Source: Owenia fusiformis (lineage: Eukaryota > Annelida > Polychaeta > Sabellida > Oweniidae). Taken from it: a stretch of 64,000 nucleotides of DNA. This document shows, piece after piece, positions 21,471 through 27,400 of the stretch (positions are counted from its first letter, which is position 1; each line of letters starts with the position of its first letter). The notes under the pieces are model-generated. The model had not been told where the DNA came from and searched no databases. It saw only the letters and a list, made by a program, of their open reading frames with translations. Location of the stretch: contig CAIIXF020000009.1 of NCBI GenBank assembly GCA_903813345.2, positions 22,345,759-22,409,758 of the forward strand. Reading direction: 5' to 3'. The translations under genes and the position numbers were made by a program.

Positions 21471-24400
21471 GTATGCAAATTTTGTCTTATATATGTCATT
21501 ATTGTCAATTATATAACATTTTTGTTTCAACTATGAATATATTTAGTTTTAATTAGAAATGAAATAGATAAGTTTTAGAAGTACATATACTTTTCACATT
21601 TAGTTTTGATAGATGATTTTAGATGATTTAAGAATGACATTCAGCTGCTCAGTATTACTACAGCTTTGCTGATGTGACATTTCATTATGAAATGGGGACT
21701 ACATCAAAATATACCATATACCATATGGTTTACAGTTGTGAAAAAACTTAACCATCAAATGTTTAGTTACATTTACATGTTTATGTACATGTGTATCACC
21801 CCCCCCCCCCCCCTCAAAAAAAGTTTTGACAAATGTAACTTTCTTATTATTGCAAATTCTGTCTATTAAATCTGATCTGTGAATAACACTTTAATGATAA
21901 CATTATAGAGAAAAATCAACTTCATTTCACCCGTCTTCCAAAAGTACTATAAAATCACGAATTTCCTCCTTTATCTATTTTTGGAGATGTTCCCTTCTTA
22001 TGTCATAAGGCCCCAGTCTGCTTTATCTGATTGATGGCCAATATGATACAAGTTGTCACTTTCGAGCCTGATCCTTCGAAGTCAGAATTTCCACATTTTT
22101 GCCAAATCATTTCAAATTACGAAACCCTCAATTGAACCTTAATTATTGATTTTCTTATCTTTGATTGCCATGGTCGTTCTTAATCAGTTTATAAGTAAGA
22201 AATGATTCAATCTAAGACATACTCTCAATTGCATATTTATAGGTGACTTGATATTTATTATTGTGCAATATAAGAGATGACGGAAAATAATTTCCGATTA
22301 CGAATCATATCTTTTCTTCAAGACTATTCATTGATTGAATAAGAATTCGCTCTGACAATTTCTAATTTATTTTTGCTCTTATTTTGACATTCGACAATTA
22401 TTTTAAAGCTTGAATGCTGGTACTGTCAGATAAAGCGAGCGCTCAGCTTTACTTCATCAAATTTCCTTTGTAACATTGATCATCATGATGTCTCATATCT
22501 CAGACAACTCATTTTGGGCTTTTTGGGTTTCCTCTTTCTAGTTTGAGAATTTAATACATATCTTTATTGTGGTTTATATTATGAAAATTCTGATGCCTCT
22601 GAGTTGTTTGATATGACTTATAGGGTTCATATTGGGTTTCAAATGTTGCTTATTGTGCTTTTTCATGAACAGTAATATATAAGTTATAATATATATAAGT
22701 TATCCTGTTATCAAAATCGCATTGAGGTTGTTTAGTTAGGATGTTACATGAGGTATTATATGCTAACCCTCACTAACATAAACATTTGATAAATATGTAA
22801 ATAAAAATCACTTTCATGTTACCACCAAAAGTGGTGACATATTCTTATAGTCTCCAACTTTTTTGTGAATGGTCTTCGACAGTCAGTATTCAGTAGTTGG
22901 TGTTTGGCAGTCAGCATCTGTAACAAATGACAGGTGGTGACAAATGGCATGACAAATGCCTTGTTTATTATAAAAATGGCATTTCATCTCTTACATTGTT
23001 CAAATACAAGTTCAGTGTATTTCGTAGAATAACATACTGATCTGTCATCCAGGATTTTGCTCAAGATCAGAGCTAACAATAGTCAAACCTGTTTGATCTG
23101 AACACCTCTAGAACCAGTTAAAATTGTTTAGATTAGGTGTTCACTTAAACAGGGGTGTAATCAGGATTTTTGCAAGAGGACTTGCATTTAAAACATAGAA
23201 AAAACCAGGATCATAGCTAGCACTTGAAGCCTGGTTGCTTCATCTCTTTGCCAGAGTACATAGTTTTTTCCCTCAAGTCTACTTTTCCAGTAGTGTGAAC
23301 AAGATCTCCGGGAAAAGTAGAATTGGGTCAAAAAGAGGATGCAGTCAACCATTATTTATATTAGATAGGTTACTTTTTTGAATTTTTCAAATTGATGTCA
23401 TGTTCAGATTAATTTGAAGATGTTCTCATTTCAACATAGGATTCAATAAAAGAAAAAAATCCAACCAGAAAAAGTGTTCACATTGGGAAATGGATTTTCA
23501 CATGGCATTGTAGTTTATATGCTCTCAAAAAAAGAATATCCACAATGCAAATAAACTGAATCAGAATATGATGTAGAATATTCAAGTCTGAAGTAGGCTC
23601 TGATTATTGGAGACACGAAGCTTAATGAAAAGAAATATAATACGCAAAGGTCTCGTTTAATAATATTTGCTCTGCATTAGTGTAAAGCAATCTTAGGAAC
23701 ATTATGAAAATGTTTTTGTAATCGACTTTTTCTATTGTGACCAATCATTAGTACCGTATTTTCGATGTACATATATTTGCACAAATAATGAACTGTGTGC
23801 TTGAATTACAGACTGACTCTGAGCAAAAGACCTAATATAAGTCAAAATAACATGTATGAATAATGTCTAAAGAATTCTGTTAACTTTAATTTTAAATCTT
23901 TTTCAATCCCTTTTATCAAATATGTCAATACTGCAATGTGTAAGAAAAAATGCTGAAAAGCGATTGAACAGTACTTGCTGTAATGTATTATTTGATATAA
24001 ATAAAATGAATAAAATAAAAAGAAAAAAAAAGAATTAAGAAAAATACTATAAGTCAACATTTCCTAGAGAATATGTCGATGCTGTGGATAGTGAAGATCA
24101 CCCTGTAGAACACCCTAGTAGTATTATATGACATCATATAATACTCTATAAGTCACCCTGTATAGCATGCCTGTTTCTTGTACAGTTTCAGAAGCTAGGA
24201 ATCTTTGTCCTATGGACCCTAATGGTTTAGCTGACCCATATTGCAAAGTTAAACTAATACCAGATGATGACAAAAAACTCAAAGTGAAAACACGTACGAT
24301 AAAAGCCACATTAAATCCTATATGGAAGGAGACGTTCCAGATGTAAGTGGTTGTACTATGGTTGTCTTGGTGATAGGTTATATCTTGGTGATAGCCTATG

Positions 24401-27400
24401 TTGATATGGTGGTCACTGTTGGTATAGTATATGGTTGCTATGGTAACTATTATAGTTGCATTTGTTCCCATGGCACCATCTGTTGTCGCTATAGTGATAG
24501 GCTGCTATTTGTGCTGTTACTCTAGCAACATACCCTTTGTTTTGATTGGTTCAAAATCAGCAAATCCGTTTTTCAATTCCTTGGTATCTATAACCAGGTT
24601 TGCTGATTTTTGTTGCAATCAATAATTCTTGTTTGTAAATTCTGTCTGGTTTTATATATACCTGTTCTCTAATCTATTTATATTCTAGTTCGAGGGGCAA
24701 GAAATCTCTGTCCCATGGACCTGAACGGACTGGCCGATCCTTACTGCAAAGTTAAAATAATACCCGAAGATGATATAGATCGTGATAGACGATTAAAAAT
24801 CAAAACTGGAACTGTAAAATCCACCCTTAATCCAAGGTGGAATGAAAAATTCCAGGTGTAAGTACAGAATGCTCTCAAAAGATGGCACTTGATATGGTGG
24901 CCATTTTGAAATGAGCCTCATTATGGTCATATGCTTGAGCAGCTGACACCATGTGTGCACTACTAATTGTACATTAAACCCATTAACTAATACAGTATTC
25001 ATTGCTTATTACATTAATAGATGGCAGCATGTGTAATTTTGGTGGTGATTCAGTTGGCTGACTTTACCATCACCAGATATTCAGCATGCTTTTAGCTGTT
25101 TTTGTTTTTGAGAAAATGTGGGTGTGTAGTTTTACCAACACGGTTCCATTTTTTGATAATGAGACACCAAACTGAAGGGAAACATCCAAACGCTTTATAG
25201 TAATACATCTGTTTGTGGTGTAGCATGCCCAATAACACTGATCAGCCATTTTCTTTTTGTGTTCTAGGATCGCATACCGTTGATGCATGATACAACAATT
25301 TGATTAATGAAATTATTGTTTTCTATTGTTGTATATCATCATAGTATTTAGTTACTCAAAGGCCATTATGAGATTTAATGAAAATTGTAACATAAAGGGA
25401 CATATTCTTTTAGCTAAAATATCTTTTTATTAGTCCTGGTATTATAATTCTGACATCCATTATCTGTGTTTATCATCACTTGTTTCCCAGAAATTTCCAA
25501 TTTCAATTATTATTTTCATCTTTCTCTGAAGGCCTTTAGTATTTTATATCTCATATTAAATCATGACTCGGTGTATTCTCATTAGATTGATTCAGAACTG
25601 ATCTATCTGTTAAACAGCATCAGTTAAAATATTATTGCATTTTGTTCATGTCCTTTGAGTGTTATTGCTAATAGCTGCAGTTTTTTGTTGTTGTTGTATT
25701 GCCCCAAAGGGGATGTTGTGTTAGTTTCATCAAGATTTTTATATTTTCTACATTTTATATAGAATTCCTTTATGAATTCAGATATCAGTTTCTCCTATAT
25801 CGTGTAAAGTAACAAATCTGTAAATCAATGGACTTACAATGTTCATGGATATAGAACTCGTTTCATTCACATGTTAATATAATGATTTATATACTGCATA
25901 TTATATTTTATACTATGATATCAGATATACAATAGATTATCGCATTTCCCAAAACCGTCAATTTTCATTAATACAAATATTCAAGTCAACGTTAGTGCTC
26001 AGGTACATTTGCTAATATATATGTTAGTTATCACAGCTCTTATAGTTTGACATTGTATTATATACCTGTAGTCATTTTTATGAATATCATACCAGCATTT
26101 TGGACCATTAATGAATAATTGAGTGATCACCATTTATGTATTAGATATTATGCCTGGCATATATTTTGTCATAATCATATTCTGTTAAAGAAAGATCCCA
26201 AAATTGTTCTATCAATTTGATACATATTCAAAACAAATACAATATGGCTGTTATACCCCAACTTGATATATAGAGGTATTACATATGACTGGAGGAATAC
26301 TGGTTTAACAGTATGGCAGCAATAATAATGCCCTTCCAAAGGATTTCCCAAGAAGGGATGACTTTTGCTCACAGATGGATAGTGCTCACTCAAATCGTTG
26401 CTGCGTTGGCACAAAATTTAGGCCCTCTCTGACACATTTTGTGTATATCTGAGAGCCATGCATCATCAAATGCAAAAATCTCCTTTAGACAGGCTTGGTA
26501 ATGCATGAAAAAATAAACAGAGCTGGTACTTTTTTTGATTTAAAGTGTTCATATTTTGAGTTGTTCAAGTGCACAGGTTTCAATTAATTAAAGTGAAAAA
26601 TTCTCCATTGAACACAAACACTCTCATTGTCACTCTCATATATCACTTAGTTATGCTTACTGTTGTAAATACAGTGTATATGTTTTAAATCAAAATGAAG
26701 TAAGATATAATCTGCTATTTATTTCAGGAAAATCCAAGAACCTGATTTCTCTAAACGACTCTCTATAGAAGTATGGGATTGGGATAGGACTTCTCGTAAT
26801 GATTTTATGGGGTCATTATCCTTTGGGATATCAGAACTTGCAAAAGATCCCGCAGAGGGGTGGTACAAACTACTCAATCAAGAAGAGGGAGAATTTTACA
26901 GTTTGCCATGTCCAGAAGAAGTTGGACCAAATGTTGCAGATCTTCGTGAAAAATTTGAAGTGAGTCATATCTGCAAGTAACTTGAAATGTTAGTCTTAAT
27001 CAAAGCTGCAATACGAGGATCTACATATGAAAGAATATCACATTCATTTCCTATCATTGGTGAAAATTATATCACAAAATTCAAGCATTTGAAAAAATTA
27101 GATTTTGCAAAACATGAATGGTGAAAATCAACCATATTCTAAAAAATCCTTTATGGCTTTTCAAAATATGGAATTTATCCTATGGCATTACGCAGGAACA
27201 TCATAACTCTGTAAGCGATAAAAGAGTATTGTTTTCAACAAAATACCATTCACTTCAAAATTTAGAAAATTCATTATCTAGACACTACGTGCATCAATTG
27301 GAGGTTTGTTTGTTTTAGATGCAGAACATTATGGACCAGAAGGCCAAGGATGCCAGGATGAACTTGGCAGGTGTGGCACACGGAGACGTCATCAGAGCTA

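What the first reader, a model, noticed from the sequence alone, without database searches (positions are those of the whole stretch)
24186..24857. Two homologous C2 exons in a conventional PKC, mutually exclusive by reading frame
Both exons (157 and 169 bp) begin two bases into a codon and end two bases into one. Each joins cleanly to 21470 and 26728. If both are included, C2b is read out of frame and hits TAA after 22 codons. If both are skipped, the frame hits TAG after 13 codons. So exactly one must be chosen. Both keep the Ca2+ ligands PMD and LAD and the basic cluster, but version b has a beta3-beta4 loop four residues longer and richer in Asp/Arg, plus PMDL for PMDP. That is the lipid/PIP2 contact region, so the choice may tune membrane affinity or Ca2+ threshold. 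Vertebrate PRKCA/B/G have one such exon, as far as I know.
Basis: partly seen in the sequence, partly recalled or inferred. Interest (0 to 1): 0.85.

Follow-up and report, generated by a model that had tools for sequence, protein, structure and literature searches.

The report
Swappable C2 exons in protein kinase C
An invertebrate gene for calcium-activated protein kinase C carries two related versions of one exon of its membrane-binding C2 domain, and the reading frame works only if exactly one is used, a known kind of splicing switch that I did not find reported at this place in this kinase.

Summary
A conventional PKC gene in an animal genome (one cPKC found in about 498 Mb) has two tandem homologous exons, C2a (24186-24342, 157 bp) and C2b (24689-24857, 169 bp). 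Both have canonical splice sites and both join in frame to the same neighbours. Including both gives TAA; skipping both gives TAG; either alone gives an intact reading frame from C1B to the stop. They are old and under selection: 37 of 51 residues identical, synonymous sites saturated (pS 0.80), pN 0.15. They share eight residues absent from vertebrate alpha, beta and gamma, so the duplication probably postdates the split from vertebrates. Residues equivalent to D187, D193, Y195, K197, K209 and K211 are kept in both; C2b adds four residues in the beta3-beta4 loop. The gene also has two alternative V5 terminal exons (as in PRKCB), so 2 x 2 isoforms. Mutually exclusive exons are already reported in C2 domains of invertebrate Syt1, Syt34 and Esyt2, and tandem exons in PRKCB, Pkc53E and pkc-2, but I found no report for a PKC C2 domain. 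The same genome has frame-enforced tandem C2B exons in Unc13 and Syt1. Exclusive use is inferred from frame; there is no RNA evidence. Affinity tuning is plausible but untested.

The parts
21342..21470 (+). shared exon: end of C1B and first strand of C2; donor leaves phase 1
   Evidence: the C1B first-half exon lies upstream of the window at G000:C9:22338636-22338734
24186..24342 (+). C2a exon, 157 bp: [51 protein letters not shown]; same length as the corresponding stretch of mammalian PKC alpha/beta/gamma
24343..24688 (+). intron between the two alternatives, 346 bp; folds better than shuffles (z about -3), meaning unknown
24689..24857 (+). C2b exon, 169 bp: [55 protein letters not shown]; +4 residues in the beta3-beta4 loop, P188L
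26728..26959 (+). shared exon: rest of C2, with the DWDRTSRND loop (D246/D248/D254 equivalents, W245, N253)
27319..34820 (+). V3 and kinase domain, eight exons (27319-27447, 30099-30272, 30580-30671, 31068-31130, 31701-31839, 32264-32344, 34252-34359, 34680-34820), intact ORF
39561..39719 (+). alternative terminal V5 exon 1, ends in TAG
42884..43036 (+). alternative terminal V5 exon 2, ends in TGA

Best explanation
A pair of tandemly duplicated, mutually exclusive coding exons in the only conventional PKC gene detected in this invertebrate. Each encodes the same stretch of the C2 domain (beta2, Ca2+ loop 1, beta3, beta4). Shown: anatomy, frame rule, intact reading frames of all four combinations with the two V5 exons, and long-term purifying selection on both copies. 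Inferred: spliceosomes pick one, and transcripts with both or neither carry an early stop far upstream of many exon junctions and go to nonsense-mediated decay. Inferred, weaker: both isoforms remain Ca2+- and PIP2-binding kinases; C2b, with a longer acidic/Arg-rich beta3-beta4 loop and Leu for Pro188, changes the lipid/PIP2 contact surface or the C2-kinase clamp, so exon choice sets how readily the kinase goes to membrane in a tissue or stage.
For: Splice sites and joins. Premature stop in both-in and both-out. Intact ORFs of 568-574 aa from C1B to stop for all four combinations. pS 0.80 against pN 0.154, 37/51 residues kept. Both match PKC alpha C2. D187, D193, Y195, K197, K209 and K211 equivalents conserved in both (alignments); K209A/K211A is published as a PIP2-site mutation (PMC3999146). 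Only this one cPKC C2 was found in the genome, so isoform diversity must come from splicing. Precedents: mutually exclusive C2 exons in Syt1, Syt34 and Esyt2 (PMC2823689), and the same frame-enforced arrangement in the Syt1 and Unc13 genes of this genome.
Against: No RNA reads were available, so neither usage nor exclusivity is observed. No other animal genome could be searched, so conservation across species is unknown. Both exons keep every identified ligand, so a strong change in Ca2+ or PIP2 binding is not predicted by sequence. No convincing splicing-control element was found.
Confidence: 0.85

Rival explanations
1. Expression switch: double inclusion or double skipping is itself used to switch the kinase off through nonsense-mediated decay, and exon b (or a) serves mainly as a poison element.
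For: Both-in and both-out transcripts have early stops. Exon a has the lowest-scoring acceptor of the gene's 14, so inclusion could be regulated (small training set).
Against: A poison exon need not keep a C2 sequence: both exons are under protein-level purifying selection and each alone gives a full open frame.
Confidence: 0.08
2. Exon b is a dead or unused duplicate that happens to be open.
For: No RNA evidence of its use; it carries the two odd features (P188L, loop insertion).
Against: Synonymous sites are saturated while 73% of residues are kept, both splice sites are good (acceptor 8.5, donor 8.9), and the insertion is a multiple of three (12 bp) in a loop.
Confidence: 0.03
3. A different functional reading of the same exon pair: the choice changes the autoinhibitory packing of C2 on the kinase and V5 tail rather than membrane binding, and works together with the V5 exon choice.
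For: The same gene has two alternative V5 exons. The basic beta3-beta4 face of C2 is, as I recall from PKC beta II work that I could not open, a face that packs on the kinase/C-tail.
Against: Both V5 exons keep the NFD motif and both C2 exons keep K209/K211, so the recalled contact is not lost in any combination.
Confidence: 0.25

Closest known systems
Mutually exclusive C2 exons of invertebrate Syt1, Syt34 and Esyt2 (Craxton 2010, PMC2823689)
   Same: Tandem homologous exons that swap part of a C2 domain, reported to have arisen several times in invertebrates; the Syt1 C2B pair is present in this same genome as 134/134-bp exons.
   Different: Different protein family; that paper covers synaptotagmin-like, Esyt and double-C2 genes, not PKC.
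PRKCB beta I / beta II V5 exons and tandem duplicated exons annotated in Pkc53E and pkc-2 (PMC9741552, PMC10318518)
   Same: Tandem alternative exons in a conventional PKC gene; this gene has a V5 pair as well.
   Different: The vertebrate pair is C-terminal (my knowledge); fly Pkc53E isoforms differ at the N-terminus/C1 (PMC10318518). Neither is in C2. The position of the worm pkc-2 event was not given.
Unc13 tandem C2B exons in this genome (G000:C10 23808172-23808031 and 23806431-23806290, minus strand)
   Same: Homologous stretch of a C2 domain, 142/142 bp, both 1 mod 3, phase-identical, pS saturated, 35/46 residues kept.
   Different: Exons equal in length; different gene; I found no publication on it either.

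Membership tests
Conventional (Ca2+-dependent) PKC | C1 domains followed by a type-I C2 domain, V3 and an AGC kinase with V5 | tested here: met
   Order C1B-C2-V3-kinase-V5 assembled with an open frame; C2 best matches PKC alpha/beta/gamma. C1A and pseudosubstrate were not located.
Conventional (Ca2+-dependent) PKC | All five Asp ligands of C2 present in each isoform | tested here: met
   D187 and D193 in both alternative exons, D246/D248/D254 (DWDRTSRND) in the shared exon
Mutually exclusive tandem duplicated exons | Adjacent homologous exons with identical phases and canonical splice sites | tested here: met
Mutually exclusive tandem duplicated exons | Both-in and both-out transcripts cannot code for the full protein | tested here: met
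   TAA and TAG stops
Mutually exclusive tandem duplicated exons | Transcripts contain one or the other exon, not both | not testable with these tools
   no RNA-seq at hand
Mutually exclusive tandem duplicated exons | Competing RNA pairing or steric block that enforces exclusivity (present in some, not all, known cases) | tested here: inconclusive
   Intron a-b folds better than shuffles (z -2.9 to -3.3), but a donor-a/acceptor-b pairing vanishes when exons are included, and duplexes between introns are no better than shuffles

The most novel reading that the evidence does not exclude
One lineage duplicated the same C2 exon stretch, frame-enforced, in three Ca2+-dependent membrane-binding proteins that act around exocytosis (cPKC, Unc13, Syt1), and the three choices are switched together by common splicing factors, giving cells a coordinated splice-set of Ca2+/lipid sensitivity.
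Probability: 0.12. Interest if true: 0.75.

Novelty: new member of a known kind. Interest (0 to 1): 0.45.

Why it matters
If both isoforms are made, an animal with a single conventional PKC gene gets two membrane-sensing modules (times two V5 tails) from it, where vertebrates use three genes. The four-residue loop and P188L are natural experiments on the best-studied C2 domain, testable with purified domains. Together with Unc13 and Syt1 in the same genome it strengthens the published view that C2 domains are a recurrent target of exon duplication.

Tried and rejected
A third C2 copy in the introns: none. A second cPKC gene: none found. Competing intron-intron RNA pairing: energies equal shuffles. 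A closing helix between donor a and the polypyrimidine tract of b appears when the intron is folded alone but not with exons, so I dropped it. Duplication older than the protostome-vertebrate split: not favoured, because a and b share eight residues against all three vertebrate paralogues and are closer to each other (37/51) than to any of them (30-36/51). Mitochondrial COX1 to name the species: not in the assembly. Literature: searches gave no report of mutually exclusive exons in a PKC C2 domain; subscription papers are mostly not held.

Full report
Observation. The window is G000:C9:22345759-22409758 of a 498-Mb animal assembly. The gene at 21342-43036 (+) is a conventional PKC: assembled from the C1B exon just upstream of the window (C9:22338636) through C2, V3, kinase and V5 it gives uninterrupted frames of 568-574 aa for all four combinations of the C2 pair and the V5 pair. 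C1A and the start codon lie further upstream and were not traced.

The two exons. C2a (157 bp) and C2b (169 bp) both start with the last two bases of a codon and end with the first two of another: intron phases 1 and 2. Including both gives TAA in the 22nd codon after the junction; skipping both gives TAG in the 13th. Both stops lie many exon junctions upstream of the 3' end, so decay of such mRNAs is expected (general knowledge of NMD, not tested).

Age and selection. Over 51 aligned codons 37 residues and 108/153 bases are identical; synonymous differences are saturated (pS 0.80) against pN 0.154, Fisher p about 3e-12. Neither copy looks like a decaying one. Against vertebrate PKC alpha, beta and gamma (sequences confirmed), a and b share eight residues that no vertebrate paralogue has (positions 184, 192, 196, 198, 204, 205, 208, 228 in PKC alpha numbering). 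Copy a differs less from vertebrates (31-36/51 identical) than b does (30-31/51). The simplest reading is a duplication after the split from vertebrates, with b the more derived copy; gene conversion could mimic this.

What changes in the protein. Both exons carry D187 and D193 equivalents, Y195, K197, K209 and K211; the other Ca2+ ligands lie in the shared exon 26728-26959. K209A/K211A is the published PIP2-site mutant (PMC3999146). C2a has exactly the mammalian length. C2b inserts four residues between beta3 and beta4 ([15 protein letters not shown] against [11 protein letters not shown]), replaces P188 by L and R/K213 by G. Net exon charge is +3 for a and +4 for b. So the isoforms should both work as Ca2+/lipid sensors, with a changed loop beside the lysine-rich face. 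A shift in membrane affinity or in packing on the kinase is the likely consequence; neither was tested. Residue roles other than K209/K211 rest on my knowledge of the PKC alpha C2 literature.

How exclusivity may be enforced. Frame plus decay is sufficient. Exon a has the lowest-scoring acceptor of the gene's 14 on a small matrix made from the other 12, and the first V5 exon is next lowest, which fits regulated choice but is weak evidence. Intron-intron pairing was no better than shuffles. The 346-bp intron between a and b is the most structured short intron of the gene (z -2.9 against +0.6 to -1.5), though some chunks of the upstream intron come close (z -2.6), and no specific blocking helix survived inclusion of the exons.

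Context. The same scan found two other frame-enforced tandem C2 exon pairs in this genome: Unc13 C2B (142/142 bp, best match Munc13-1) and Syt1 C2B (134/134 bp), both with saturated pS and about 76-77% residue identity. Mutually exclusive C2 exons in Syt1, Syt34 and Esyt2 are published as repeatedly evolved in invertebrates (PMC2823689). Tandem exon events are also annotated in PRKCB, Pkc53E and pkc-2 (PMC9741552); the fly isoforms differ in the N-terminus/C1, not C2 (PMC10318518). I found no report of a PKC C2 pair or of an Unc13 C2B pair in the open literature held here.

Verdict. A real, selected, frame-enforced alternative exon pair: a new member (a new gene) of a known kind. Exclusive use and functional tuning still need RNA and biochemistry. 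The genome's size and the number of large contigs resemble the annelid Owenia fusiformis (505.8 Mb, 12 chromosomes, PMC9977687), but this was not tested.

Noticed in passing
G000:C10:23808172-23808031 and 23806431-23806290 (minus strand; L002): Unc13/Munc13-like gene with tandem C2B exons of 142 bp each, both 1 mod 3 and in the same phase, so likely mutually exclusive too; 35/46 residues identical, synonymous sites saturated.
   Followed up: partly
G000:C11:2012815-2012948 and 2013634-2013767 (L005): Synaptotagmin-1 C2B tandem exons of 134 bp each, in line with the mutually exclusive exons published for invertebrate Syt1.
   Followed up: partly
window 39561-39719 and 42884-43036: Two alternative terminal V5 exons, each with its own stop, like beta I/beta II of PRKCB; with the C2 pair this makes four possible kinases from one gene.
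   Followed up: partly
G000:C6:22500238-22502636 and C6:24534808-24537802 (L006, L007): Pairs of exons that look like cPLA2 C2 exons, of symmetric length (147/147 and 141/147 bp), so not frame-enforced; either alternative exons or tandem gene copies.
   Followed up: no
window 24343-24688: Intron between the two C2 exons folds better than dinucleotide shuffles (z about -3) and holds a 28-nt inverted repeat at 24553-24610; role unknown.
   Followed up: partly
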